Assembly (NCBI RefSeq): GCF_028869115.1
Contig: NZ_CP079800.1
Location: 930,001 to 994,000 of the forward strand
Direction of reading: 5' to 3'
DNA: 64,000 bases
Source of the DNA: Pseudemcibacter aquimaris
GTDB lineage: Bacteria; Pseudomonadota; Alphaproteobacteria; Sphingomonadales; Emcibacteraceae
A program made the position numbers and the translations under genes. Shown piece after piece: positions 24,444-37,581 of the stretch. Position 1 is the first letter of the stretch. Every line of letters begins with the position of its first letter. The notes below the pieces were generated by a model. That model saw only the letters and a program-made list of their open reading frames with translations, did not search any database and was not told the origin of the DNA.

Positions 24444-24877
24444 GACATATCACACAAAATGGATTGGACCTGATCAAACGGTTCGAGGGCTTCTCTCGGA
24501 CCGTTTATTTTTGCCCGGCTGGTTATCCCACCATCGGCTATGGCCACGTTGTCAAAGACGACGAGGACTTTTCGTCAGGCATTGATGAGGTACAAGCCGA
24601 GGAATTATTGCGCCAAGATGCCCAGATTGCAGAACGTGCTGTTTTGCGCCTGATCAATGTGCCGCTGACAGATGGTCAGTTCGATGCGCTGGTCTCATTC
24701 ACCTATAATCTTGGTGGCGGGGCGCTTCAACGCTCCACACTGCGCCGTAAAATCAACCGTGAGGAACACGCCGAAGTACCAGAGCAATTCATGCGCTGGG
24801 TCTGGGCGGGTGGCCGTAAGCTCAAAGGGCTGGTTAGGCGTCGGGCTGCTGAAAGTGATCTATATGCGTATCAATAA
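24440..24877 (+). CDS. Endolysin, T4-type lysozyme (GH24)
   Basis: Muramidase that cleaves the MurNAc-GlcNAc bond to release phage at lysis. It is 145 residues with the family spacing Glu16-x8-Cys25-x5-Thr31, in FEGFSRTVYFCPAGYPTIGYGH. The middle position is Cys instead of the Asp of T4 lysozyme, a known natural variant of the triad. No signal peptide or signal-anchor is visible, so release depends on the holin. The gene overlaps the last bases of hsdR, transcribed toward it, by 7 bp. Confidence 0.94.
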   Translation: MRHITQNGLDLIKRFEGFSRTVYFCPAGYPTIGYGHVVKDDEDFSSGIDEVQAEELLRQDAQIAERAVLRLINVPLTDGQFDALVSFTYNLGGGALQRSTLRRKINREEHAEVPEQFMRWVWAGGRKLKGLVRRRAAESDLYAYQ

Positions 24878-27800
24878 TGCTCGCTGATATAGCCATAGGC
24901 TTTATCAAACAATTCCGCATCCTTATGTAGCTGATATTTGAGAAGAGTTTTTCTCAATACCTGCTTCATCTCACGATCACCAGCTGTCGTGTTTTGCCAT
25001 CCCGGGAAGCGTGTTGCTTTGACGATTTTATCAATGTCATCAACAATGCGAGAGATGATTTCAGGTGTCTGATCGTTGCGAACTTCCTTAAACAATTCAG
25101 ACAACGCCGTTTTATTATCTTCGACGATTTTTTCATCATGCCCAGAGCCATTGTCTAAATGTACAGTCTCACGGGCAGCGTCGAGAAGTTCTTTGAGCCA
25201 GTTGATAGAGCTTAATACACCAGATTCATATTTTTCGCGGAGTTTTTCAAGGCGCTCACCAAGCTCAACATATCTGGGATCACCAGACTTCTTGCGAACT
25301 TTAGCCATCAAACTGATTTCCAGTGTTTTGGCACGTCTCGATTGCTCTGCTTCGGTCAAAGTGAAGATGGAATCCTCATCCATTACCAACTCGTCGAGAT
25401 CACCACGAATTTGGTCAATATCTGTGTGCTGGTGGATCAAGCGAATAGTTTCTGGCCCAAGCGACTGCCAAATCAATGAGCCTAAACCACCAACTGGACG
25501 CACAGAGTCATAGACTTGCGCCAACCAGCGATAATCTTTCTGGAATGGCTGTAAGAATGGATCGGGTGTTAAAGCCTCCCACAATTTTTTCAAAACATTG
25601 AACTGCGCCGCAAATTGGTCACGCACCTCATTTGAGGCAAGGCAATCCTGCGCCGCAATCAAGCCCTCATACCCACCAACGGTGCGATCAACGCCGTTAA
25701 AAAAGGCCAAGCATTTTTCAATCGCAACAGGCACTTCGTCTTTATATTTGCCCAGCTGATCCACAACGCCTTCAATCTCTTTCGGATCATAGGCGAGTGC
25801 TTTTGCCAGGTTTTCAAACACGCCCAAATAATCAATGATAAGGCCATGCTGCTTGGTTTCATCATACAGGCGGTTCGTCCGGCACATGGCCTGCAGCAAT
25901 GTGTGGTCGCGCAGAGGCTTATCCAAATACATGCAATAGCAAATCGGCGCGTCGAATCCGGTCAGGAGCTTAGCAGTCACAATCAGGATTTTCAGTGGAT
26001 CGGTGGAGTCACGATATTGATCGAGCACTTTTTCCTGATTGGTTGAGCTGGCATCAATAGACTGCCAGCGCTTAAAGGCTTCCTTATCTAGCGGCAGGCC
26101 CAGCTTTTCCCATTTGACCCAATCGGCAGCCTTTTTCTTTGGATTGCCGTTTTCGTCCTTTTCATCATCAATCGCCCCTTGGGAGAGGTTCATCACCACT
26201 TCGCAGATGCCTTCGCCGAAACGCTTGGTCAGAAGATCATACATCAAAACACAGGCTTCGCGGTCATAGACCACCACCATGGCTTTCAGCCCTTTAGGCT
26301 CAACATGGCTGGTGAAGTGTTCTTGAATATCATTGGCGATGGCTTCCATACGCTTAGGAGCTTTAAGCAAATGCGCGAGCTTCCCGGCCTTTTGTGAGAG
26401 CTGTGTTTTTTCCTCTTCCGTCAGGTTATTAGCCTCGGCCAGCGCATCGAATTCTTTATCGATAGCCTCTTGATCAACACGCAGCTCAGCCAAACGCGGT
26501 TCAAACTTAACTGGAAGTGTAGCCTCATCACGAATGGACTGTTTATATGAATAGCGGTTCATATATCGCCCTTGGTCTTGATCAGCACCGAAGAGACGGA
26601 AGGTGTTACGCTCAATGCCAGAGATCGGCGTGCCTGTCAGGCCAAAGAAATAAGCATTCGGCAACGCCCAACGCATTTTTTCGCCCAGCATACCTTCTTG
26701 AGTGCGGTGCGCTTCATCGACCAGAACAATGATATTTTCGCGTGGGTTCAGGCCGTCCTTATTGTTCTCGTCAATTTCCACGTCATCAAATTTGAAGACA
26801 GTGGTCACAAGGATATTGCGGCTATCATGCTCCAGCTCTTTAGAAAGCTGTTTGCAGGATTTCACCGGGGTGACGTTTTTCACATCCGCATTGTCAAAGG
26901 TAGTGTTGATTTGGCTGTCTAGATCAACGCGATCCACCACAACCACCACGGTTGGGTTTTTCAAATCCGGATCAGCTTTCAGCATCTTCGCGGCATAGAG
27001 CATCAGCAAGGATTTACCGGAGCCTTGGAAATGCCAGATCAACCCTTTGCGGATTTCACCGCTTTTTACACGATCCACGATTTGTTTGGCCGCTTCATAT
27101 TGCGGATAACGGGGCAGCAGCTTGATACGCTTGATCACATTGGTGTTAGGCAGCTTGGTGGCTGAATACAGCGCAAACGATTGCAGCAGTTCCAACAGTG
27201 TTTGCGGCTCCAACAGGCGCTCGGCACTGGTCAGGACCGTATTCATGTTCTGCGGAATCTCATCGCCATCTGTGGTTTTGTGCCATGGCATCCAGTGTTT
27301 GAACCCGGCATTCACCGCGCCATAGGCAAAGGTTTTGCCTTCCGTGGCGAAACATAAAAGGTTCGGTACAAAAAAACTGCTCTGATTAGCCCAGTAATGC
27401 TTGTCACCGCCCATAAAATCAGAGGCACCATCTTGCCAGCTGATCGCCATGCGGACAGGTGTTTTAACTTCTCCAACCACCAACGGTATACCGTTCACAT
27501 ACAGCACCAGATCAAAGAAGGCGTTTTTCGCGCCCATGGAGGGCACTTGCTGTGAGACCACATACTGGTTTTTGGAATGGTCGTGATAATCAATCAGGTT
27601 GATAGTGATATGCTCGCCATCTTTGCCTAGCGGCATGGATTTTTCACCGCGCAACCATTCGGTAAACAGCTCATTGGCGCGAACAAGGCCGCTATGGCTG
27701 GCCTCCAGCAAGACACCGCGCAGCTTGTAAATCACCTCATCGGCTTTTTCGGAGTCTTTGGCAATATCGGGATTCAAACGGCACAGCGCATCTTTCAGCC

Positions 27801-27936
27801 AGCATTCAATCAGCACATCCTGCGGCTCACGCGGCAACTCGGTCCCGTGGATGAATGTCCAGTTATCACCCGGTAACGCAGCAAGGCGGTCGCGGATGGC
27901 TTCTTCGATGGTATTGGCTTCGTTAAATCCGCTCAT
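24871..27936 (-). CDS. hsdR: Type I restriction endonuclease R subunit
   Basis: The motor and nuclease subunit of a type I restriction enzyme: it translocates DNA with ATP and cuts far from the recognition site when it meets unmethylated DNA. It is 1021 residues. The N-terminal nuclease shows Asp142...Glu156-Val-Lys158 (PLVVGEVKTP), followed by Walker A QGSGKS at 304-309, the DEAH box at 407-410 and further helicase motifs (FGLTGTPI, TNRLYDETKQHG). It overlaps hsdS by 4 bp, as the last gene of the operon. It looks intact. Confidence 0.97.
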   Translation of the reverse strand: MSGFNEANTIEEAIRDRLAALPGDNWTFIHGTELPREPQDVLIECWLKDALCRLNPDIAKDSEKADEVIYKLRGVLLEASHSGLVRANELFTEWLRGEKSMPLGKDGEHITINLIDYHDHSKNQYVVSQQVPSMGAKNAFFDLVLYVNGIPLVVGEVKTPVRMAISWQDGASDFMGGDKHYWANQSSFFVPNLLCFATEGKTFAYGAVNAGFKHWMPWHKTTDGDEIPQNMNTVLTSAERLLEPQTLLELLQSFALYSATKLPNTNVIKRIKLLPRYPQYEAAKQIVDRVKSGEIRKGLIWHFQGSGKSLLMLYAAKMLKADPDLKNPTVVVVVDRVDLDSQINTTFDNADVKNVTPVKSCKQLSKELEHDSRNILVTTVFKFDDVEIDENNKDGLNPRENIIVLVDEAHRTQEGMLGEKMRWALPNAYFFGLTGTPISGIERNTFRLFGADQDQGRYMNRYSYKQSIRDEATLPVKFEPRLAELRVDQEAIDKEFDALAEANNLTEEEKTQLSQKAGKLAHLLKAPKRMEAIANDIQEHFTSHVEPKGLKAMVVVYDREACVLMYDLLTKRFGEGICEVVMNLSQGAIDDEKDENGNPKKKAADWVKWEKLGLPLDKEAFKRWQSIDASSTNQEKVLDQYRDSTDPLKILIVTAKLLTGFDAPICYCMYLDKPLRDHTLLQAMCRTNRLYDETKQHGLIIDYLGVFENLAKALAYDPKEIEGVVDQLGKYKDEVPVAIEKCLAFFNGVDRTVGGYEGLIAAQDCLASNEVRDQFAAQFNVLKKLWEALTPDPFLQPFQKDYRWLAQVYDSVRPVGGLGSLIWQSLGPETIRLIHQHTDIDQIRGDLDELVMDEDSIFTLTEAEQSRRAKTLEISLMAKVRKKSGDPRYVELGERLEKLREKYESGVLSSINWLKELLDAARETVHLDNGSGHDEKIVEDNKTALSELFKEVRNDQTPEIISRIVDDIDKIVKATRFPGWQNTTAGDREMKQVLRKTLLKYQLHKDAELFDKAYGYISEHY

Positions 27937-29096
27937 GCTGCCTCCTCGAGAGTATTTTTAATTAATAATTTTCGAATATTTAGTGTTTTATCTTTCTTTT
28001 CTTCAAGTAAATCAATTGATGCTTCAAAACCATTCAGTGTCTCAGAGATTGATTCTTGTTTCTCTAAATCAGGAAGGTTGATTTTGACTGAAGCCATGTC
28101 TGACTGATTAACCGAGGGAACAGCGCCCTGCCTTACGAAGGTTGCAAAGTCAATCGTGTTTAAGAAGTGGTATAGATACTCAGTTGAAATCTCTCCGCTT
28201 GGTAAGGCTGCCATCATGTTATTATCAATAATTGTTGAATGCTTCAAAATGCGCCTTCTATTTAATAAAAGAGCTGCGCCAACTTTTGCGAATACAACAC
28301 TGCCAGCAGGAAATTCTGTGGCTTTCATTATTTTCTTCTCTTCGCCACTTATCCAATTATCAGACTTGATAATATATTTGCTATTCTCGCCGTGATTCAT
28401 GTCTGCAACCTTGATGAAGGGTATTTCTCCTTGCTTATTTCCTTGGTATTTAGGTTTAAAACCAGATCCACCCTTAAATTTGACGATGTCGCCTAAGTTG
28501 ATTTTTTTATATTCATCATCATGAACGGACTCCGCCCTTATTTTACCCAATAAAAAATCAGTTCTTTTCAGGAGTTCATCAATTTGAAAAAGTTTATCTT
28601 CAATCTTCTCAAAGATCTCCAGCATCTCCTCCTGTCGTGGGCGGGGCGGCAGTGGGAATTCTTGGTTGGCCAGTGTTTTCCATTTGATGGTTGGTGAGAG
28701 TGAACCTTCGGAGATTGCAACGGCTCGCTCCATGAACATATCTGATTGCATAAAAAATGGCAGATATTCAGGCACCACTGCTTCTGGGATCGCTTCCAGC
28801 ACCATTGCATGCGCCGAACAAATGCCCTCAAAATCAGCAACGGCCACTTTGCGTTGATAAGCGCGACGTTTGCCAAAGATGATTTGGCCGGGCTTCACCA
28901 GAAGCTTCTGGCCCTTCACATCACTCGGTACGCCTCTGCGGGTAATGCGTAAATTGTCAGGATCAAGGTGCTCAAGTCCAACATACACTTCCAAGTCTGT
29001 ATCCGCAGGATCAACACGCTTGCTCACGCTTTTGGCAATCTCGCCAAACTTAACGATGCGCCAGCCTTCTGATTTTTGTTTCTCCGTTAATTGCAT
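27933..29096 (-). CDS. hsdS: Type I specificity subunit S
   Basis: The DNA-recognition subunit of the M-S-R complex: two target-recognition domains, each reading one half of a bipartite site, joined by conserved helices. It is 387 residues. TRD1 spans about 10-160 with LPPRPRQEEMLEIFEKIED-type helix after it; TRD2 spans about 200-345 and ends in the second helix (KQESISETLNGFEASIDLL). The DNA for the TRD2 half (27.95-28.55 kb) is much more AT-rich than the TRD1 half and the rest of the operon, suggesting TRD exchange. The gene overlaps hsdR by 4 bp and follows hsdM2 after 6 bp. Confidence 0.95.
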   Translation of the reverse strand: MQLTEKQKSEGWRIVKFGEIAKSVSKRVDPADTDLEVYVGLEHLDPDNLRITRRGVPSDVKGQKLLVKPGQIIFGKRRAYQRKVAVADFEGICSAHAMVLEAIPEAVVPEYLPFFMQSDMFMERAVAISEGSLSPTIKWKTLANQEFPLPPRPRQEEMLEIFEKIEDKLFQIDELLKRTDFLLGKIRAESVHDDEYKKINLGDIVKFKGGSGFKPKYQGNKQGEIPFIKVADMNHGENSKYIIKSDNWISGEEKKIMKATEFPAGSVVFAKVGAALLLNRRRILKHSTIIDNNMMAALPSGEISTEYLYHFLNTIDFATFVRQGAVPSVNQSDMASVKINLPDLEKQESISETLNGFEASIDLLEEKKDKTLNIRKLLIKNTLEEAA

Positions 29097-29102
29097 CGCT
29101 GT

Positions 29103-30590
29103 TTACGCCTCATATCCCAATTCTTTCAAGCTATCGAACAGCTTGTTTGTTTGCTTTTTGAGAAGGGTGCGAGAGATTTTCCAATCTTCAATGGCACCTT
29201 CTAAATCCTGTTCTTCCTCGTGACTGCCATTGCCGTTTTTGGCGGTGACATAGAGTGGAATGGACAGGTTGAATAAATTGTCTTTGACCTCATCCAGATC
29301 GACTAATCGCGCTATATCTGGGTGATCTTCTGGCTCGTAATAGGCTTCGACCAGCTTTTCCAAATTGTCGTCGGATAAAAAGCTGGTGGCGCGTTCACGG
29401 GTGACTTCATGCACGCCATTCACAAAGACAATCTTGTTTTTGCGGTCGGCGGTTTTGTTATGGCGCAGGACCACCACGCAAGATTCCATAGGACTGTTGT
29501 AAAACAGGTTTGGCCCCAAGCCGATGACGGCCTCAACCAAGTCACTGGCGATCACGCCTTTGCGGATATCTTCTTCCTGATCACGGAACAACACGCCATG
29601 CGGCCAAAGCATTGCAGCGCGGCCTGTTTTCGGGTTCAGGCTTTTCATGATATGCTGGAAAAACGCATAATCGGCGCAGCCCTGTGGGGGGACGCCATGC
29701 ATGTTACGGCCATATAGGTCCGATCCGAATGCCTCTCGGTCCCATTTCTTGATGGAGTATGGTGGGTTAGCAAAGATCACATCGAATTGCTGGAGCTTGT
29801 CGCCTTTGGTAAATTTCGGCTCTTTGAGTGTATCGCCACGGGCAATATCAAATTCCTCAATATCGTGGAGCAGCATGTTCATCTTGGCAATCGCTGAGGT
29901 CAGAAGATTGACCTCTTGCCCATAGAGTTTGACGGTGCGCCATTCGCGGTCGTCTTTGCGTAAATCCATGACGGCGTTCAGCAACATCCCTCCGGTACCG
30001 CAGGTGGGGTCATAGGCCGTTTCACCCGGTTGCAAGCCAAGGATACGTGTCATCAAATGCACAACGGTGCGGTTGGTGTAAAACTCGGCTGCGGTATGAC
30101 CTGAATCATCGGCGAATTGCTTGATCAGATATTCGTAGGCATTACCCAGATCATCCTGATCAATGTCCTTCACGCCGAGCGGGATTTGGCTAAAATGATT
30201 GATCAGCGACACCAGTAGGTGGTCCGGCAAGCGCTCTTTATTCGTCCAGACGGCATCGCCGAACACGCCATATAAGCGCGGATTGGCTTTTTCGATGGCT
30301 CGCAGGGCATCTTTCAGGACTTTGCCGACATCCTTGGTGGTGGATTGGACCACGCTCCAGCGGGCATTATCGGGAATGACAAAGCGGTGCTGCTCAGGCT
30401 TTTTGGCAAGCTCATCATCCTCATAAAGCTCAAGCGCTTGGATATATTCTTCCTGATAGACATCATCCATGCGTTTATAAAACAGCAGCGGGAAGATGTA
30501 TTGTTTATAATCTGATGCTTCGATTTGACCGCGCAGCAAAACAGCCGCACCCCAGAGCAAATCTTCCAGTTGTTTTTGTGTGATGCTCAT
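29103..30590 (-). CDS. hsdM: Type I methyltransferase M subunit, second copy
   Basis: N6-adenine DNA methyltransferase subunit of the type I system. It is 495 residues with the N-terminal helical domain (MSITQKQLEDLLWGAAVLL), the SAM-binding motif I DPTCGTGG (194-201) and the catalytic motif IV NPPY (275-278). It is clearly related to the preceding hsdM but is not a recent identical copy; differences run throughout. Its start overlaps the stop of the upstream hsdM by 4 bp. Both copies keep the catalytic motifs. Confidence 0.96.
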   Translation of the reverse strand: MSITQKQLEDLLWGAAVLLRGQIEASDYKQYIFPLLFYKRMDDVYQEEYIQALELYEDDELAKKPEQHRFVIPDNARWSVVQSTTKDVGKVLKDALRAIEKANPRLYGVFGDAVWTNKERLPDHLLVSLINHFSQIPLGVKDIDQDDLGNAYEYLIKQFADDSGHTAAEFYTNRTVVHLMTRILGLQPGETAYDPTCGTGGMLLNAVMDLRKDDREWRTVKLYGQEVNLLTSAIAKMNMLLHDIEEFDIARGDTLKEPKFTKGDKLQQFDVIFANPPYSIKKWDREAFGSDLYGRNMHGVPPQGCADYAFFQHIMKSLNPKTGRAAMLWPHGVLFRDQEEDIRKGVIASDLVEAVIGLGPNLFYNSPMESCVVVLRHNKTADRKNKIVFVNGVHEVTRERATSFLSDDNLEKLVEAYYEPEDHPDIARLVDLDEVKDNLFNLSIPLYVTAKNGNGSHEEEQDLEGAIEDWKISRTLLKKQTNKLFDSLKELGYEA

Positions 30591-32083
30591 AGCTCGAAAC
30601 CCTCCTTGGCCAGCAGGGCCTCTAATTCATCTTCTGCCTGTTCAAGATTGGCGAGTTTCTGTTTAAAATCTTTCAGGGCTTCTTCCACCGTGATGGTTTC
30701 TTCCTCAAGCGGCTTTTGCACATATCGCGCAATGTTGAGGTTAAAGTCGTTTTCTTCGATCTCCTTGATCGGCACCCAGCGACTTACGCCTTCGATTTCT
30801 TCCGCTGCTTCATGCTGGCGTTTGTAGATGTCGTAGATTTCATCGGCTTGGCCTTCGCTCATGGTGTTTTGAGCGCGGCCTTTGGTGTAAATCTCATCAG
30901 CGTTGATGAAGAGGACTTCTTTTCGGTTCAGCGTTTTCTTGTCTTTTCGCAGGACAAGCACACAAGCGGAAATACCAGTGCCATAAAACAGGTTCTCTGC
31001 AAGGCCAATCACACATTCCAAAGCGCCATTTTTGATAAGCGCCTCACGGATTTTGGCCTCAGAGCTTCCTCTGAATAGAACGCCATGTGGCACAACAACA
31101 GCCATCCGGCCTGTATCATCACGCATGGACGCATACATGTGCATGACCCAAGCAAAGTCGCCGTTCTTTTTTGGTGCGATGCCGTAGGCATTACGGTTAT
31201 ATTGATCAGCACTCCAGCTATCATGACCCCAGTCTTCAAGGCTGAATGGTGGGTTAGCGATCACGCAGTCAAAGGTTTCCAGCTTGTCACCATCGGTAAA
31301 TTTGGGATCGCGCAGTGTATCACCGCGAATGATCTGAAAATCCTCCATGCCATGCAGAAACAGGTTCATGCGGGCAATAGCTTCGGTGGTCAGGTTTTTC
31401 TCTTGGCCTTTGAGCGTCAAAAGCCGTGGGTCTTCGCCACGCTCCTGAACATGGTGGATTGTTTCAAGCAGCATGCCGCCTGTACCGCAAGCCGGGTCAT
31501 AGACAACTTCACCCGCTTTTGGGTCAAGGACATTGACCATCAGCCTTACAACAGTGCGCGGTGTATAGAACTCACCTGCTTTTTTATTGGCCTTGTCAGC
31601 AAACTTCTTGATTAGAAATTCGTAGGCGCGACCCATGTCATCATCACGGACATCCTTCACGCCCATCGGGATTTGATGGAAATGATTGAGCAGTTCTGTG
31701 ATTAAGCTGTCAGGCAAGCGATCTTTGTTGGTCCACGGCGCATCACCAAATATGCCATAAAGATGCGGATTGGCTTTTTCAACACAGCGGAAAGCACCTT
31801 GCAGGGCTTTACCGACATCCTTTGTGGTTGAAAGCACATCGCTCCAGCGGCAGCCTTTTGGAATTTGAATGCGGTGTTGCTCAGCAGCGTTGGCGAGGTC
31901 CTCATCACCGTAAAGCTCCATCGCCGTTTCAAATTCTTCATTATAGACATCGTTGATGCGTTTGAAGAAAAGGATCGGGAAGATGTAGGTCTTGTAATCA
32001 GACGCATCGATAGGCCCGGTGATAATATGCGCGGCCATCCAGAGCTGGTGCTCTAATTCTTTCAGCGTTAGCTTTTTACTCAC
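30587..32083 (-). CDS. hsdM: Type I methyltransferase M subunit, first copy
   Basis: A second type I adenine methyltransferase subunit. Taken from GTG 32083, it is 498 residues, with motif I DPACGTGG (196-203) and NPPF (277-280), and homologous along its length to the other hsdM. The GTG has AAGGTG upstream and overlaps the regulator's stop by 8 bp; ATG 32104 (with AGGAAAG) is an alternative. The longer frame to 32224 mostly overlaps the small upstream gene in another frame and is not used. The phenylalanine in motif IV (NPPF) is found in many active HsdM proteins. Confidence 0.94.
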   Translation of the reverse strand: MSKKLTLKELEHQLWMAAHIITGPIDASDYKTYIFPILFFKRINDVYNEEFETAMELYGDEDLANAAEQHRIQIPKGCRWSDVLSTTKDVGKALQGAFRCVEKANPHLYGIFGDAPWTNKDRLPDSLITELLNHFHQIPMGVKDVRDDDMGRAYEFLIKKFADKANKKAGEFYTPRTVVRLMVNVLDPKAGEVVYDPACGTGGMLLETIHHVQERGEDPRLLTLKGQEKNLTTEAIARMNLFLHGMEDFQIIRGDTLRDPKFTDGDKLETFDCVIANPPFSLEDWGHDSWSADQYNRNAYGIAPKKNGDFAWVMHMYASMRDDTGRMAVVVPHGVLFRGSSEAKIREALIKNGALECVIGLAENLFYGTGISACVLVLRKDKKTLNRKEVLFINADEIYTKGRAQNTMSEGQADEIYDIYKRQHEAAEEIEGVSRWVPIKEIEENDFNLNIARYVQKPLEEETITVEEALKDFKQKLANLEQAEDELEALLAKEGFEL

Positions 32084-32276
32084 CAGCTTCACCTTTTGTT
32101 TCATTTCTTTCCTGTTCACTGATCCAACGGTCAATCTCGCTTTTGCGAAATCGCCACGCGCTTCCCACTTTGAAGCCCGGAACCTTGCCCTCAGATGCAA
32201 ATCGATAGGCCGTCTTCTCAGCAATCTTGAGGTAATCGGCGAGTTCCTTCACGGTCATAATGTCATCATTGGGCAT
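32076..32276 (-). CDS. Excisionase-family helix-turn-helix protein
   Basis: A 66-residue MerR-like/excisionase-type DNA-binding protein: IMTVKELADYLKIAEKTAYRF is the helix-turn-helix and the wing follows as GFKVGSAWRFRKSEIDRWI. It is the first gene of the hsd operon and overlaps hsdM by 8 bp. Such small proteins are often found at the head of type I restriction operons and may set their expression; alternatively it is a recombination directionality factor left from a mobile element. I favour the regulator role because no integrase is nearby. Confidence 0.85.
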   Translation of the reverse strand: MPNDDIMTVKELADYLKIAEKTAYRFASEGKVPGFKVGSAWRFRKSEIDRWISEQERNETKGEAGE

Positions 32277-32348: not shown

Positions 32349-32391
32349 TTGACATTATACCCCACTGGGGTATATACCCATACTGGGTATA
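32349..32391 (+). promoter_or_regulatory. Copper-operon promoter with two tandem CsoR-type operators
   Basis: A TTGACA -35 at 32349-32354 and a TATATA -10 at 32371-32376 (16-bp spacer) are overlaid by two palindromes. Site 1 is TATACCCC-act-GGGGTATA (32356-32374, perfect 8-bp arms). Site 2 is TATACCC-atact-GGGTATA (32373-32391, perfect 7-bp arms), overlapping the first by 2 bp. G-tract inverted repeats of this kind are the usual operators of CsoR/RcnR-family repressors. The csoR-like gene begins at 32411. Copper-relieved autoregulation is inferred. Confidence 0.85.
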
Positions 32392-32410: not shown

Positions 32411-32677
32411 ATGCATCCATCACACAAAGATCATTTAGGAAAATTAAACCGCGTTTCCGGGCAGGTTGAGGCGGTTAAAAGAATGATTGATGAAGGAAAA
32501 TACTGCGTTGATATCATGACACAGATACGTGCGGCTCGAAGCGCTCTGAAGGCAGTAGAGCTGGCCGTTCTTGAAACGCACATGAAGTCTTGTCTCGATC
32601 AGGCCTGTTGTCACAGCGCAGATGAACAAAATAAAAAAATTGAGGAGATCGTCACGCTCCTTAAAAAATATGAATAG
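32411..32677 (+). CDS. csoR: CsoR-family copper-sensing repressor
   Basis: An 88-residue all-helical DUF156 repressor. The copper(I) ligand set Cys32-x24-His57-x3-Cys61 has the spacing of CsoR (Cys-His-Cys) rather than that of RcnR or FrmR. The characteristic HKDHLGKLNRVSGQVEAVKRM helix forms the DNA-binding face. It lies 20 bp after twin palindromes that overlap its promoter. It is the first gene of the copper-related operon, so it most likely represses the operon until Cu(I) binds. Confidence 0.95.
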   Translation: MHPSHKDHLGKLNRVSGQVEAVKRMIDEGKYCVDIMTQIRAARSALKAVELAVLETHMKSCLDQACCHSADEQNKKIEEIVTLLKKYE

Positions 32678-32740
32678 ATCGGAAAGGTTCTACGTGATCC
32701 AAAGTGAAAGAAAATATAATTTGAAAGGCATGATATAAGC

Positions 32741-33466
32741 ATGACAGCACATTTATATCGAATGGAATTGCCAGACCATCTTTGCCCCTCCGGCGTAAAG
32801 TTGAAAAGCTATCTGGAAAAGAAGCGTATTAAATTCACAGACCATCCTCTTAAAAGCAGAAATGAGGTGGAGGCGTTGAAAGATGAGTTAGGTGTAAAAA
32901 CAACCCCACAGCTGGTGATAGATAATCAAGTTGTTGGTGGATATGAGGCTTCTCTTGAGCATTTTGGTGACCAAGCAGGTAATGACAAAACCTATATGCC
33001 AGTTATCGCGCTGTTTTCCATTGCTGCTTTAAGTGCAGTATCAGTGACTTGGTTGGTCTCAACATCGGTTTTTTCAAATATGACCCTCCCGTGGTTTATA
33101 GCCATTTCGATGATCCTGCTTGGTTTGCAAAAGCTGAAAGATATTCAATCATTTGCTGACATGTTTTTGAATTATGATTTGTTAGCACGCGCATGGCCTC
33201 CCTATGGAAAAATTTATCCGTTTCTGGAAGCGGGTGCTGGTTTGCTGATGTTCGCAGGCATTTTGACTTGGCTATCTGCGCCAGTCGCTTTGGTGTTTGG
33301 GTCGATTGGGGCCGTCAGCGTATTCAAGGCGGTTTATATTGATAAACGAGACCTTACTTGTGCCTGTGTCGGAGGTAATACAAATGTTCCGCTCGGATTT
33401 ATCTCATTGCTAGAAAATTTGATGATGGTCGGCATGGCTGTCTGGATATTGTTCAAAATCATTTAA
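32741..33466 (+). CDS. Glutaredoxin-MauE fusion membrane protein
   Basis: A 241-residue fusion. Residues 1-75 form a glutaredoxin-like domain with a monothiol active site Cys15-Pro-Ser-Gly, the cis-proline in KTTPQLVI and GGYEASLEHF. Residues 84-240 form a four-helix membrane domain of the MauE/DoxX redox type (LTWLSAPVALVFGSIGAV), with a Cys207-Ala-Cys209 pair. Such proteins are associated with disulfide or electron transfer across the inner membrane. In this copper operon it may supply reductant or handle disulfides damaged by copper. The domains are clear; the role is inferred. Confidence 0.8.
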   Translation: MTAHLYRMELPDHLCPSGVKLKSYLEKKRIKFTDHPLKSRNEVEALKDELGVKTTPQLVIDNQVVGGYEASLEHFGDQAGNDKTYMPVIALFSIAALSAVSVTWLVSTSVFSNMTLPWFIAISMILLGLQKLKDIQSFADMFLNYDLLARAWPPYGKIYPFLEAGAGLLMFAGILTWLSAPVALVFGSIGAVSVFKAVYIDKRDLTCACVGGNTNVPLGFISLLENLMMVGMAVWILFKII

Positions 33467-33493
33467 TGAATAATTTAGAGGTTAAATCGATTT

Positions 33494-33928
33494 ATGACTC
33501 GTAATATTGTAATACTTCTTATTATCGCCCTTATCGGCGGCGTTTACTTTTGGCTGTCAAATAATGATGAGCAGAATGCCAAAGTTTCTGACGGCACAAA
33601 GTCAAACAGCGCCTTGGTGTCTGTTACATTGCCTGAACAGCTTTCCGATAATGCCATCGTAGGTAAGCGCATTTTTGAAGCAAAATGCGCTTCGTGTCAT
33701 GGTCAAAACGCTGCGGGGCAAAAGGGCGTAGCTCCACCTTTGATACACAAAATCTACGAACCATCTCACCACGGGGACGAGAGCTTCCAGCGTGCGGCTG
33801 CGCTTGGGGTTCGTGCTCACCATTGGCCATTTGGCAATATGCCGCCAGTTGATGGGCTCACTCGGGCTGAGGTGTCTACCATTATAACCTATGTTCGCGA
33901 GCTACAGCGGGCAAATGGAATTAACTAA
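33494..33928 (+). CDS. Membrane-anchored cytochrome c
   Basis: A 144-residue class I cytochrome c. An uncleaved N-terminal helix (IVILLIIALIGGVYFWL) anchors it in the inner membrane. The haem motif is Cys65-Ala-Ser-Cys68-His69 and the probable distal ligand is Met116 in FGNMPPVDGL. It could carry electrons from the multicopper oxidase reaction or to a terminal oxidase. It sits between the glutaredoxin-MauE gene and copC in the same operon. Confidence 0.9.
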   Translation: MTRNIVILLIIALIGGVYFWLSNNDEQNAKVSDGTKSNSALVSVTLPEQLSDNAIVGKRIFEAKCASCHGQNAAGQKGVAPPLIHKIYEPSHHGDESFQRAAALGVRAHHWPFGNMPPVDGLTRAEVSTIITYVRELQRANGIN

Positions 33929-33950
33929 CGCACCAAACAAAGAGGAAAAA

Positions 33951-34307
33951 ATGAACCGCATTCTTAACCTAGTAACGATAGTCGCATTTTCAGCTGTTTT
34001 AACTTCACAGGCTCTAGCACATTCCGATACTAAAATGACCGTACCCGATAATGAAGCGATATTAGATGAAGTCCCCGAAACGATTTCAATCCATATGGCC
34101 AAAAAAATTCGTTTGACTAAAGTAGAAATGCAACATGAAGATCATGAAATCCTTGAAATTGATACTTCCGAATATAAGAGCTTTCAAACGGAATTCACAT
34201 TGCCAATCGAACCCATGGGTACGGGGATTTATAATATAACCTGGCGTGCCCTTGGACAGGATGGTCATCCGATTGAGGGTGCATTCCAGTTTACTGTGAT
34301 GGAATAG
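33951..34307 (+). CDS. copC: Copper resistance protein CopC
   Basis: A periplasmic copper-binding protein of 118 residues. The start is ATG 33951 with AGAGGAAAAA upstream; the longer frame from 33891 overlaps the cytochrome. A signal peptide ends at ...SQALA and leaves His24 as the first mature residue, the N-terminal His of the CopC copper brace, with Asp104 and His106 in GQDGHPIEG completing the site. A small beta-barrel follows. copD comes next, giving the usual C-D pair for copper uptake or storage. Confidence 0.92.
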   Translation: MNRILNLVTIVAFSAVLTSQALAHSDTKMTVPDNEAILDEVPETISIHMAKKIRLTKVEMQHEDHEILEIDTSEYKSFQTEFTLPIEPMGTGIYNITWRALGQDGHPIEGAFQFTVME

Positions 34308-34313
34308 CGGCAG

Positions 34314-35186
34314 ATGGACTTGTTGAGCCTCTTTTCAATCATATCGAAACTTATGCTTTACATAGGTGCTTTGTTTGCATCAGGCACCATTATATATCTG
34401 ATAGTTTTTGAAACAAATAAAGCAAAATCAAGTTTCAATGGTCGTCCAATAACGGGTTTGTTTGCTATTGTTGGGTTGATTTCTGCGTTGACCAGCTATG
34501 CCTTGGCTGCTGCAAGGTTAACCGGCGAAGTAGCTGGCGCAGTCGATCCAGAAATGCTCGGCATTCTATGGCAAACTCCAGTTGGAACGGCATTGCTTTT
34601 ACGTGCTTTGGGATTCTTCCTCATAATTGTTGGACTTTTTTCTGGTAAAGTTAGCAAGAGCTTAATGGCTATTGGCTGTTTGGTCGTTCTAGGATCATTC
34701 ACTCAAATAGGTCATGTAGCAGATATACCGAATTTTCTTTTTCAGGCTTTACTGCTCACCCATTTGATGGGAATTGCCATCTGGGTCGGGATTTTGTTCC
34801 CCTTATACCGATTAAGTTCAGATCCTGCACAAATTAAAACAACCGAAGAGATCGCACATCGGTTTGGTCGGTTGGCAGTGCTCTTCGTACCTATATTATT
34901 TATTGCGGGCGGGTGGCTTGCTTATGAACTGGTAAATTCACTCACAAATTTATTCACCACAGGATACGGACAGACTCTGCTTATCAAGATTTTCCTTGTA
35001 ACTGGGCTGCTGGGCTTGGCAGCTGCCAACAAGCTACGGTTTGTCCCTGCTTTAAGGGGTGGAGATTCGGATGCTCTGAAACATCTTAAACATTCAGTAC
35101 TGGTCGAGATTAACTTGGTGGCTTTCATATTGTTTGCAACTGCGGTTCTAACAAGTGTTCTCACCTTGCCGGAGGCTCATTCATGA
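34314..35186 (+). CDS. copD: Copper resistance protein CopD
   Basis: An inner-membrane protein of 290 residues with about eight hydrophobic helices and the CopD signature at LLTHLMGIAIWVG, where the histidine is a likely copper ligand. It works with CopC to move copper across the inner membrane. It starts 6 bp after copC and its stop overlaps the multicopper oxidase start by 4 bp. Length and helix number fit the family. Confidence 0.92.
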   Translation: MDLLSLFSIISKLMLYIGALFASGTIIYLIVFETNKAKSSFNGRPITGLFAIVGLISALTSYALAAARLTGEVAGAVDPEMLGILWQTPVGTALLLRALGFFLIIVGLFSGKVSKSLMAIGCLVVLGSFTQIGHVADIPNFLFQALLLTHLMGIAIWVGILFPLYRLSSDPAQIKTTEEIAHRFGRLAVLFVPILFIAGGWLAYELVNSLTNLFTTGYGQTLLIKIFLVTGLLGLAAANKLRFVPALRGGDSDALKHLKHSVLVEINLVAFILFATAVLTSVLTLPEAHS

Positions 35187-36502
35187 TCACTCGTCGACAT
35201 TTTTTGGCCTCGACCGCCGCTAGCCTGTGCATACCCTCTCTGGCTTTTGCAGATGAAGCCATGAGGCTACGCGCCGAGCCAGTTAAACTTGACTTGCTGC
35301 CAGACCAAGACCAGACTTCACTTTGGGGGTTCAACGGCTCCACTCCTGGCCCTACCATTCGGACCCGCAAAGGTGGGCGCGTAAAGGTTCGGTTCGAGAA
35401 TGCTTTGAAGCAATCTTCTGCGGTACATTGGCACGGAATTCGTATTGATAATAAGATGGATGGCGTGCCAGGGTTAACGCAATCGCAGGTTTCCTCTGGG
35501 AATGATTTTCTCTACGACTTTGTTGCACCGGATGCTGGAACTTACTGGTATCATTCTCATGATAGATCGTGGGAACAAGTTGCACGTGGTTTGTATGGTG
35601 CGCTGATTGTTGAAGAGGAAAATCCACCTCTTGTCGACCATGACATCATTGTTTTTGTCGATGACTGGCGTCTCAACCGAGATGGTTCGCAGGCCGGTGA
35701 TTTTGAGAATATGCACGATCAAGCTCATGCTGGCAGAATGGGTAATTTTGCTAAGGCAATCTTTCAAGGTGTAACCTCTCCAATCAAACTTAACCAAAGA
35801 ATTCGTTTGCGCTTCATAAATGTTGCAACAGACCGAATATTCCCGCTCCAGCTTACTGGTGTAGACGGGAAAATCATCGCTTATGATGGAATGCCACTCG
35901 AAAAACCAGAGGATATGGACAATATTATTCTCGCACCAGCGCAACGTGCCGATATCATCGCGGATGTAACCGGTGAAACAATTGAAGTCAATTTTACGGC
36001 TCGTGATGGTTTGTTCCGATTGGGAGGATTTACGGTTCAAGGCCTGATCGAACCAACAGCGAAAGCCGAAGTCATTCTACCGATGATAAATCGCTATGAA
36101 ATGCCTGATTTGAAAAACGCTGTGCAATTAACTCTTCAAATGGAAGGTGGAGCCATGAGCCGCCGCATGATGATGGGGGGCATGATGAACGGTGATGTCT
36201 GGGCTTTCAATGGTGTATCAGGCATGACAGATACACCATTCCATAAGTTCAAAGCGGGTCAGACTGGTGTCATCGAACTCGTCAATGATACCAGATTTCC
36301 ACACGCGATTCACCTGCATGGGCATCATTTTCAGGCGATCGTATCAGGAGGCATGTCGCCATTGCGAGATACCATCCTTGTTGATGCTGGGAAAACCACA
36401 AAAATTGCCTGTGTTTTCGATAATCCAGGAAAGTGGTTACTTCACTGCCATATGTTGGCTCACCAAGCTGCAGGAATGAAAACCTGGGTTGAAGTTGCAT
36501 AA
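35183..36502 (+). CDS. Tat-exported multicopper oxidase
   Basis: A laccase-like oxidase that oxidises Cu(I) (and possibly phenols) in the periplasm. It is 439 residues with a Tat signal (TRRHFLASTAASL). Copper motifs are HWHG (82-85), WYHSH (122-126), HAIHLHGHHF and the C-terminal His421-Cys422-His423...His427...Met432. A methionine-rich insertion near 320-332 (MSRRMMMGGMMNGD) resembles the cuprous-oxidase Met-rich region of CueO/CopA. Coupled to copD by a 4-bp overlap, it is the core detoxifying enzyme of this operon. Confidence 0.95.
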   Translation: MITRRHFLASTAASLCIPSLAFADEAMRLRAEPVKLDLLPDQDQTSLWGFNGSTPGPTIRTRKGGRVKVRFENALKQSSAVHWHGIRIDNKMDGVPGLTQSQVSSGNDFLYDFVAPDAGTYWYHSHDRSWEQVARGLYGALIVEEENPPLVDHDIIVFVDDWRLNRDGSQAGDFENMHDQAHAGRMGNFAKAIFQGVTSPIKLNQRIRLRFINVATDRIFPLQLTGVDGKIIAYDGMPLEKPEDMDNIILAPAQRADIIADVTGETIEVNFTARDGLFRLGGFTVQGLIEPTAKAEVILPMINRYEMPDLKNAVQLTLQMEGGAMSRRMMMGGMMNGDVWAFNGVSGMTDTPFHKFKAGQTGVIELVNDTRFPHAIHLHGHHFQAIVSGGMSPLRDTILVDAGKTTKIACVFDNPGKWLLHCHMLAHQAAGMKTWVEVA

Positions 36503-36542
36503 AAGATATTTAGCGATCCCATACGAAAGGAAAGTAATTATT

Positions 36543-36806
36543 ATGAATGTGCTCATGTCAAGGATAGCAACAAACATCAAATCTCATACAATGATGTGGT
36601 TATGCTGCATCGTGATGATTGTACCGCTCTTTAGCTTTCTGTTATTCAACAGATCTGATTTTGATGTCGTTGAGCTGGCTTTTCAAGCCAGTCCGTTGTT
36701 GTTATGCGTAGGAGCGCACTTAGTTCTGCATAAATTTATGGGAAAATCTTGCCATTCTGAGACCAAGACTTCTAATAATGACGATGTTTTGCAAAAAAAT
36801 GAATAA
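36543..36806 (+). CDS. Small membrane protein, DUF2933-like
   Basis: An 87-residue membrane protein with two hydrophobic helices (MWLCCIVMIVPLFSFLLF and ASPLLLCVGAHLVLHKF) and a Cys-His-containing end (GKSCHSE). It resembles DUF2933 proteins often found beside copper-resistance genes. The start is ATG 36543; AAGGAAAG lies about 10 bp upstream. The in-frame extension to 36489 overlaps the oxidase and is less likely. Role unknown; its Cys and His residues may bind metal. Confidence 0.7.
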   Translation: MNVLMSRIATNIKSHTMMWLCCIVMIVPLFSFLLFNRSDFDVVELAFQASPLLLCVGAHLVLHKFMGKSCHSETKTSNNDDVLQKNE

Positions 36807-37263
36807 GACCACCATCATTTTGATATTTATTATTATCATTGTTGGAGCTTTTGGTGGTGCCATTTTCATAAAGAACAAGCCAACAATACTTGTTTCAAAC
36901 AATCAAGTTCGGTCCATTGCAACTGGCAAGCTGTTGTATCAACAAAATTGTGCCAGTTGTCACGGGGCAAATCTAGAAGGTCAGCCGAATTGGCGTTCAT
37001 CAAATACTGATGGCAGTTTTCCTGCCCCGCCCCATGACGAAACAGGACACACATGGCATCATGATGATGAAACGTTATTTAATTATACGAAACTTGGGGG
37101 CAAGGGCATAGCCAAGCTGTTGGGTTATGAAAACCCAAATAGTGGCATGCCAGCTTATGAAGATAGCCTGAGTGATGCAGAAATAGCTGCAATATTAAAC
37201 TACATTAAATCGACATGGCCGCAGAAAATACGCGATATTCAATCTGCCAGAAATACTAAGTGA
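36799..37263 (+). CDS. Second membrane-anchored cytochrome c
   Basis: A 154-residue cytochrome c anchored by an N-terminal helix (TTIILIFIIIIVGAFGGAI). The haem motif is Cys51-Ala-Ser-Cys54-His55, with Met117 in NSGMPAYEDS as probable distal ligand. The start is uncertain: ATG 36799 gives an 8-bp overlap with the gene before; ATG 36778 is also in frame, and neither has a clear ribosome site. Last gene of the operon. Related to, but clearly different from, the cytochrome at 33.5 kb, so not a recent duplicate. Confidence 0.88.
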   Translation: MNKTTIILIFIIIIVGAFGGAIFIKNKPTILVSNNQVRSIATGKLLYQQNCASCHGANLEGQPNWRSSNTDGSFPAPPHDETGHTWHHDDETLFNYTKLGGKGIAKLLGYENPNSGMPAYEDSLSDAEIAAILNYIKSTWPQKIRDIQSARNTK

Positions 37264-37480
37264 CTTTAAATTCCAATGAATCCCAAACAGGGATTCGAAC
37301 GCATGATTGGTACGGTACTTTCATCGCTATGATTGAGGCCATACCAAGAACGGAAATCAAAGCAGCACAAGGTGTTGCAACATAAAACTTGCTTTCTATT
37401 GTTTTCAGGGCGATTATTTGTTGCAACACAATGGTGAGTGTAGAGGATTCGAACTCAAAGGGGTTCAATACACCGCCATT
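37264..37480. other. Non-coding stretch with tRNA-like fragments and inverted repeats
   Basis: No credible gene lies here. It holds a hairpin GAATCCC-aaaca-GGGATTC (37278-37296), the 10-mer GGATTCGAAC twice (37291-37300 and 37445-37454) and an 11-bp inverted repeat GTGTTGCAACA / TGTTGCAACAC (37372-37382 and 37419-37429). On the minus strand, 37431-37458 resembles the 3' end of a tRNA, with GTTCGAATCC and a final ACCA, but no full cloverleaf can be folded. The stretch may be a relic attachment site at the border of an acquired block; this is inference. Confidence 0.45.
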
Positions 37481-37510
37481 AAAAAAGGGTCCCTTTTGGG
37501 ACCCTTTTTT
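37481..37510. terminator. Strong bidirectional terminator
   Basis: AAAAAAGGGTCCC (37481-37493), loop TTTT, then GGGACCCTTTTTT (37498-37510): a perfect 13-bp stem with A-run and T-run on both sides. It can end transcription from the copper operon on the plus strand and from the flavoprotein gene on the minus strand. Confidence 0.9.
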
Positions 37511-37581
37511 AATGTCTGCATTTGATCTTGGTATTTCTGATCCTTAATCTAAGATGGCTATTCATCACTTAATATTTAAAG

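What the first reader, a model, noticed from the sequence alone, without database searches (positions are those of the whole stretch)
32411..37263. Copper operon built on redox chemistry rather than an export ATPase
The operon holds csoR, a glutaredoxin-MauE fusion, two anchored cytochromes c, copC, copD, a Met-rich multicopper oxidase and a small Cys/His membrane protein, but no P-type ATPase (CopA). The two cytochromes flank the CopC-CopD-oxidase core, which suggests that electrons from Cu(I) oxidation, or from thiols via MauE, go to the respiratory chain. The combination is unusual and could be a self-contained copper oxidation and electron-disposal system.
Basis: partly seen in the sequence, partly recalled or inferred. 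Interest (0 to 1): 0.75.

Follow-up and report, generated by a model that had tools for sequence, protein, structure and literature searches.

The report
Copper operon with two His-rich cytochromes
This is a real copper-handling operon whose core (cytochrome, CopC, CopD, copper oxidase, cytochrome) recurs in other bacteria, and its two cytochromes carry conserved histidine clusters that suggest, but do not prove, that they exchange electrons with copper directly.

Summary
Eight same-strand genes at 32411-37263 encode CsoR, a glutaredoxin-MauE fusion, cytochrome c, CopC, CopD, a multicopper oxidase (MCO), a DUF2933-like protein and a second cytochrome c. Two CsoR-type palindromes lie just upstream.

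No copper ATPase is in the operon; the whole genome shows one heavy-metal ATPase, of FixI/CcoI type by context.

The combination is not a one-off. Of 69 CopD loci with enough downstream sequence, 33 have cytochrome-CopCD-MCO-cytochrome in that order and 15 keep both cytochromes without adjacent MCO; elsewhere both cytochromes accompany an MCO without CopCD (L044, L123).

Both cytochromes carry near-invariant His clusters. Of 29 class-wide loci found with the second cytochrome, 21 hold a copper gene, against 2 of 100 control windows. For the first it is 11 of 28.

The MCO resembles Lac15, a marine metagenome laccase, and keeps all copper motifs, so it should need no cytochrome to dispose of electrons.

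Verdict: a new variant of a Cop-like copper system. Cytochromes as direct copper redox partners is the best reading, unproven.

The parts
32358..32389 (+). two CsoR-type palindromes, TACCCCACTGGGGTA (32358-32372) and TACCCATACTGGGTA (32375-32389); the first lies just after a TTGACA (32349-32354)
   Evidence: TACCCN5GGGTA occurs at 3 places in the whole genome, 2 of them here (reversed-pattern control: 7 forward matches); promoter assignment by eye, not listed by the scan
32411..32677 (+). CsoR-type copper-sensing repressor, 88 aa; Cys32-His57-Cys61 align with Cys-His-Cys of known CsoR
   Evidence: PF02583 91.3 bits; PDB 4adz CsoR E 2.5e-16; ligand assignment by eye from that alignment
32741..33466 (+). 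glutaredoxin-MauE fusion, 241 aa; monothiol-like CPSG site, CAC motif in the MauE part
   Evidence: PF00462 and PF07291 over cut-off; C15, C207, C209 invariant in 44 rows
33494..33928 (+). cytochrome c no. 1, N-terminal anchor by eye, His cluster H85, H92, H93, H109, H110
   Evidence: PF00034 52.9 bits; these His conserved 0.94-1.00 in 67 rows
33951..34307 (+). CopC, periplasmic copper-binding protein
   Evidence: PF04234 61.3 bits (queried from 33939)
34314..35186 (+). CopD, membrane protein with eight long helices in the model; H134 and H150 conserved, also in E. coli YebZ
   Evidence: PF05425 71.8 bits; AlphaFold2 mean pLDDT 90.8
35183..36502 (+). multicopper oxidase of Lac15 type with a Tat-type signal
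   Evidence: three Cu-oxidase Pfam domains; PDB 4f7k E 2.8e-170; motifs
36543..36806 (+). small DUF2933-like membrane protein
   Evidence: 18.7 bits, below the Pfam cut-off of 21 (queried from 36537)
36778..37263 (+). cytochrome c no. 2, N-terminal anchor by eye, motif HDETGHTWHH (H86, H91, H94, H95); start may be 36799
   Evidence: PF00034 55.2 bits; His conserved 0.96-0.98 in 55 rows; motif in 28 of 29 class-wide loci examined

Best explanation
A CsoR-controlled, copper-induced periplasmic copper-redox module. When cytoplasmic Cu(I) rises, CsoR leaves the two palindromes and the operon is read. The Tat-exported MCO oxidises periplasmic Cu(I) with O2. CopC binds Cu(II) and CopD handles copper at the inner membrane, possibly importing it. 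The two cytochromes bind copper through their His clusters and exchange electrons with it, most likely taking electrons from Cu(I) and passing them to the respiratory chain, so that copper can be oxidised beside CopCD even where no MCO is adjacent. Grx-MauE keeps thiols or copper-thiol adducts in the right redox state. Shown: gene content, recurrent order, conserved His clusters, genomic linkage to copper genes, no CopA-type match in this genome. Inferred: every functional step, above all the direction of electron flow.
For: Order cytochrome-CopCD-MCO-cytochrome in 33 of 69 CopD loci and both cytochromes without adjacent MCO in 15 of 69; both cytochromes with an MCO but no CopCD found in L044 and L123, so copper is the common denominator. 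His clusters near-invariant in 67 and 55 rows. Second cytochrome: motif in 28 of 29 and copper neighbour in 21 of 29 class-wide loci, against 2 of 100 control windows. First cytochrome: motif in 23 of 28, copper neighbour in 11 of 28, with a CueR match of 52-61% identity in L230, L231, L233, L235, L250, L252. CsoR and palindromes. MCO motifs and solved relative. Published field transcripts: IMG genes 2517701225 (cytochrome C family protein), 2517701226 (copC) and 2517701227 (copD) have ratios 0.15, 0.05 and 0.06 and are listed as higher in MBARI-C16 than in HTCC2255 (PMC10203303, passages); that the three are neighbours is inferred from the numbers and from L162, an HTCC2255 locus with cytochrome-copC-copD in that order.
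Against: 13 of the 28 first-cytochrome loci carry the His motif without a detected copper neighbour, so the motif need not mean copper. No coordinates were available to see whether the His residues meet in space. Roseobacter litoralis, whose plasmid carries the five genes, was less copper-tolerant than R. denitrificans (PMC3141670, passages). CopD homologues are proposed importers (PMC13344008, passages), which fits reduction as well as oxidation. 8 of 69 loci have the upstream cytochrome and CopCD only, and 5 have no cytochrome and no MCO.
Confidence: 0.45

Rival explanations
1. Copper supply, not disposal: the cytochromes pass electrons from the respiratory chain to Cu(II) on CopC, so that CopD can import copper for MCO or cbb3 oxidase metallation. 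They would be the reductase that is missing from current models of CopCD import.
For: CopD domains are proposed copper importers, and whether copper reduction is enzyme-catalysed is called unknown, in PMC13344008 (passages). In C. [quoted passage not shown] The MCO here has a Tat-type motif. Both cytochromes persist with CopCD without adjacent MCO in 15 of 69 loci.
Against: CsoR here, and a CueR/MerR-type match within the fetched stretch in 22 of 55 full-length loci, point to copper excess, when import would be harmful. The genome has a FixI/FixH locus whose adjoining partial ORF resembles the cupric reductase CcoG (by eye). Both cytochromes also occur without CopCD in the stretch examined (L044, L123).
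Confidence: 0.27
2. The cytochromes are spare electron carriers, induced to keep respiration running when copper disturbs ordinary cytochrome c maturation; the His motifs are structural.
For: Without the MCO CutO, copper-grown R. capsulatus lacked CcoO and CcoP, and only cytochrome c1 was detected (PMC8456105, passage). The first cytochrome keeps its His motif without a detected copper neighbour in 13 of 28 loci.
Against: Linkage of the second cytochrome to copper genes (21 of 29 against 2 of 100) and near-invariant His clusters are more than a generic carrier would need.
Confidence: 0.15
3. An ordinary Cop-like operon in which the MCO and CopC do the work and the cytochromes are minor passengers.
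For: CopC, CopD and an MCO are part of the classical Cop set; an MCO alone can oxidise Cu(I) with O2 (established knowledge of CueO-type enzymes).
Against: Both sides keep a cytochrome in 48 of 69 loci, 15 of them without adjacent MCO.
Confidence: 0.13

Closest known systems
Cop/Pco systems (copABCD of Pseudomonas and Cupriavidus)
   Same: CopC, CopD and a Tat-type MCO, presumably copper-induced
   Different: CsoR instead of CopRS; no CopB match in the operon; two cytochromes c and Grx-MauE added; the MCO is the short Lac15 type (TIGR01480 186 bits against a cut-off of 479)
Lac15 laccase, PDB 4f7k, from a marine metagenome (PMC4103834)
   Same: homologue over the whole mature protein (E 2.8e-170)
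   Different: studied as a dye-decolourising laccase; the phrase 'copper resistance' occurs 0 times in that paper's main text (passages seen)
R. capsulatus cutFOG
   Same: alphaproteobacterial MCO operon for periplasmic copper
   Different: three genes, no cytochrome; MCO maturation partly depends on CopA (PMC8456105, passages), for which this genome has no match besides the FixI-type protein
YcnJ of B. subtilis and YebZ/YobA of E. coli (CopC-CopD)
   Same: CopC-CopD pair; H134 and H150 of this CopD align with His of YebZ
   Different: no cytochrome gene next to yobA-yebZ in K-12; YcnJ acts under copper limitation (PMC13344008, passages)
Plasmid copper islands of marine Rhodobacterales
   Same: R. 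litoralis pRLO149_83 has the five-gene core, a glutaredoxin (Grx-MauE) and DUF2933; the Marivivens plasmid has the five-gene core; a Roseovarius plasmid has cytochrome-MCO-cytochrome, Grx-MauE and DUF2933
   Different: R. litoralis and Roseovarius stretches also hold an annotated P-type ATPase and CueR; Roseovarius shows no CopCD in the stretch; here CsoR and one compact operon

Membership tests
Cop/Pco-type copper system | MCO, CopC and CopD encoded together | tested here: met
Cop/Pco-type copper system | CopB-type outer-membrane protein in the operon | tested here: not met
   no CopB among the Pfam and NCBIfam hits of the eight operon proteins; not sought genome-wide. Hence filed as Cop-like variant, not as a member
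Cop/Pco-type copper system | CopRS two-component regulator | tested here: not met
   the operon's regulator is CsoR
Cop/Pco-type copper system | confers copper tolerance | not testable with these tools
   needs knock-outs
CsoR copper sensor | Cys-His-Cys copper ligands | tested here: met
   alignment with 4adz and 4m1p; residues by eye
CsoR copper sensor | G-tract palindromic operator upstream | tested here: met
   2 of the 3 genome sites lie here; binding not tested
three-domain multicopper oxidase | all four copper-ligand motifs | tested here: met
three-domain multicopper oxidase | Cu(I) oxidase activity | not testable with these tools
   biochemistry needed
class I cytochrome c | CxxCH and a distal Met | tested here: met
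   C65-H69 with M116 and C58-H62 with M124, conserved; distal role of Met by homology
copper-binding cytochrome | conserved His clusters | tested here: met
copper-binding cytochrome | His residues close in space and binding copper | not testable with these tools
   no model coordinates in /data; no cytochrome model was made
cytochrome b561 / bd-like heme protein (considered for CopD) | significant fold match and His pairs for hemes | tested here: inconclusive
   best PDB match cytochrome bd 8b4o, E 0.044, TM 0.53; none at E <= 0.001; three His conserved at 0.9 or more

The most novel reading that the evidence does not exclude
Two uncharacterised families of His-rich c-type cytochromes are dedicated copper redox proteins that couple periplasmic copper (on CopC/CopD, an MCO or both) to the respiratory chain. 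They would be a membrane-linked Cu(I) oxidase or Cu(II) reductase that current copper models lack, recurrent in Alphaproteobacteria, many of them marine.
Probability: 0.35. Interest if true: 0.8.

Novelty: new variant of a known kind. Interest (0 to 1): 0.45.

Why it matters
Whether copper reduction next to a CopC-CopD importer is enzyme-catalysed is described as unknown (PMC13344008, passage). A recurrent pair of His-rich cytochromes around CopCD gives concrete candidates that can be deleted or purified. It would also give a biological setting to the Lac15 type of marine laccase, and raises the question of how a complete genome with no CopA-type match handles copper.

Tried and rejected
CopD as a heme b561-type electron conduit: the model is good, but Foldseek gave no match at E <= 0.001; the top three hits are cytochrome bd subunits at E 0.044-0.15. 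Left as inconclusive.

Operon as replacement of CopA: weakened, because 6 of 11 congeners (G289, G290, G291, G293, G294, G295) show at most one P-type ATPase, and none of 12 congeners has this MCO. Most congener genomes are in many contigs. CopA-like family assignment was made only for L142, L143 and L145; other ATPases are judged by size.

CusA-type RND export as backup: the one heavy-metal RND match over the cut-off covers profile positions 419-1040 only in a 592-aa frame with another gene upstream: apparently truncated. Six other RND loci score below the cut-off.

Grx-MauE as a copper marker: 17 neighbourhoods (15 genomes) were fetched; 9 have a copper-set match (two of them only a 35-36% CueR match) and 8 have none. 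The link is moderate.

MCO-cytochrome pairing counted on 20 fetched MCO loci: 12 have a second-cytochrome match, but I picked several of the 20 because searches already showed the pair. Among the nine best-scoring non-self MCO matches, all fetched, it is 4 of 9 (L107, L108, L109, L114).

Fold of Grx-MauE: mean pLDDT 66.9, too poor to search. Empty insertion site: in the four congener stretches compared, the long match to the window's surroundings is the dihydrolipoyl-dehydrogenase-like gene alone, so no empty site was shown. No direct tRNA-Ser repeat of 11 nt or more was found at the right side; one inverted 12-mer was.

A first MCO count by motif used a wrong pattern and was replaced.
Full report
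What is there. Eight + strand genes at 32411-37263: csoR, glutaredoxin-MauE, cytochrome c, copC, copD, multicopper oxidase, a DUF2933-like small gene and a second cytochrome c. Gaps are short or negative. Two CsoR-type palindromes lie at 32358-32389. The strict pattern TACCCN5GGGTA occurs at three places in the 3.37 Mb genome, two of them here. The reversed control pattern gave 7 forward matches, so the third place (2266484) may be chance.

No copper ATPase. PF00122 finds one E1-E2 ATPase in the genome, beside a FixH-like gene, with an HMA motif and CPC; it is of FixI/CcoI type by context. TIGR01511 gives the same protein plus a 21-bit fragment, and a congener's CopA-like protein finds only it. 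The one heavy-metal RND match over the cut-off is truncated. In the genus, 1 of 13 genomes, this one, has the MCO.

Is it a one-off? No. One genome-collection scan with a CopD alignment confirmed 97 places, of which the best 80 loci were kept; most record titles name Rhodobacteraceae or their genera, with a few others (L170 Arenicellaceae, L190 Neomegalonema, L227 Altererythrobacter). 69 of the 80 have at least 2.3 kb after copD. Among these: 33 cytochrome-CopCD-MCO-cytochrome; 15 the same without adjacent MCO; 8 upstream cytochrome and CopCD only; 5 no cytochrome and no MCO; 4 upstream cytochrome and MCO without the downstream cytochrome; 2 downstream cytochrome only; 2 MCO and downstream cytochrome only. 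Of 55 loci longer than 12.7 kb, 25 have all five genes, 13 of these also Grx-MauE; a CueR/MerR-type match is present in 22, csoR in 2, a P-type ATPase match in 2. The set was chosen through CopD, so these figures say how CopD of this type is accompanied, not how common the module is.

Other arrangements. The five genes lie in order on plasmids of Marivivens and Roseobacter litoralis. The R. litoralis stretch, and a related plasmid with CopC-CopD-MCO-cytochrome, also carry an annotated P-type ATPase and CueR. On a Roseovarius plasmid (L044) and in G194 (L123) both cytochromes sit with an MCO and no CopCD was detected in the stretch. So neither CopCD nor the MCO is the fixed partner; copper is what these loci share.

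View from the cytochromes. In 289 class genomes, this one included, 58 have a match to the second cytochrome and 22 to the first, both at E <= 1e-15. For the second I examined the 29 non-self loci that the call supplied (more matches were listed without loci): 28 carry HxxxGHTWHH and 21 have a match to my copper-gene set within about 1.5 kb. For the first, all 28 non-self loci (two pairs overlap, so 26 places): 23 carry its motif and 11 have a copper-set match. A few of these loci are from the same genomes as the CopD set (for example G252). Control: 2 of 100 windows of 3.4 kb from 20 arbitrary stretches of 19 class genomes (Fisher P 1.3e-15 and 5.2e-7, not corrected for relatedness; the control database was larger, so slightly stricter).

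Conserved residues. First cytochrome, 67 rows: H85, H92, H93 and M116 1.00, H109, H110 and W111 0.94. Second, 55 rows: H86 and H91 0.98, H94, H95 and M124 0.96. The His lie between the heme motif and the Met. NCBIfam has no family for either above its cut-off, and PDB matches are weak. Grx-MauE: C15, C207 and C209 invariant in 44 rows, with CPxG in the six rows printed and not CPxC. CopD: H134 and H150 also in YebZ; confident model, weak resemblance to cytochrome bd subunits.

Mechanism. The MCO keeps all copper motifs and resembles Lac15, so it can be expected to reduce O2 itself. The cytochromes occur without it, so their partner is more likely copper on CopCD or copper itself. Two directions are open. 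Oxidation of Cu(I) fits copper-excess regulation by CsoR or CueR. Reduction of Cu(II) fits the proposed import role of CopD (PMC13344008, passages) and the idea that CopCD supplies the MCO (PMC10304878, passage). I put oxidation first. Against a strong resistance role: R. litoralis was inhibited at 0.04 mM copper while R. denitrificans grew at 0.1 mM (PMC3141670, passages). For co-expression: PMC10203303 (passages).

Literature. In the listed results of searches (10 to 20 rows each or fewer, often of more papers) I saw no paper on cytochromes as part of a CopCD module; only those listings and the passages named were seen, and subscription journals are mostly missing. PMC10203303 names a copper-related operon with copC and copD and lists the cytochrome separately; PMC3141670 lists the R. 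litoralis plasmid's copper genes, and 'cytochrome c' occurs 0 times in its main text.

Setting. Left of the operon lie a type I restriction-modification system and a prophage; GC falls from about 0.49 to 0.40 across the operon. Together with the genus distribution this suggests acquisition, which was not proven.

Noticed in passing
window 1-24877: Prophage: terminase GpA, lambda-type portal, capsid E, P2-type tail proteins, DUF4815 protein, lysozyme.
   Followed up: partly
window 24871-32276: Type I restriction-modification genes (HsdR, an HsdS-like ORF, two HsdM-like ORFs in tandem) and a small HTH_17 protein, between prophage and copper operon (the ORFs at 27933-30590 judged by eye).
   Followed up: partly
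L286:19375-19464 (genome 909375-909464): tRNA-Ser(GCT) about 20.5 kb left of the window, where GC starts to rise: possible left edge of an island.
   Followed up: partly
window 37263-37560: Two stretches resembling tRNA T-arm ends and a GGGTCCC hairpin after the operon; origin unexplained.
   Followed up: partly
L141:5102-6880 (genome near 2081100-2082900): Heavy-metal RND pump gene apparently reduced to its C-terminal part, with another gene where the first half should be.
   Followed up: partly
window 35183-36502: The marine laccase Lac15 (4f7k), studied for dye decolourising, is the closest solved relative of this copper-operon oxidase.
   Followed up: yes
L156, L169, L171, L174, L175 and ten others: Ruegeria and relatives keep cytochrome-CopC-CopD-cytochrome without an adjacent oxidase.
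   Followed up: partly
L219, L225, L226, L227: A variant with DUF411, second-type cytochrome, CopC, CopD, then inverted csoR and Grx-MauE.
   Followed up: no
L162 (alpha proteobacterium HTCC2255): The Grx-MauE match lies in two pieces in different frames or positions, possibly a broken gene.
   Followed up: no
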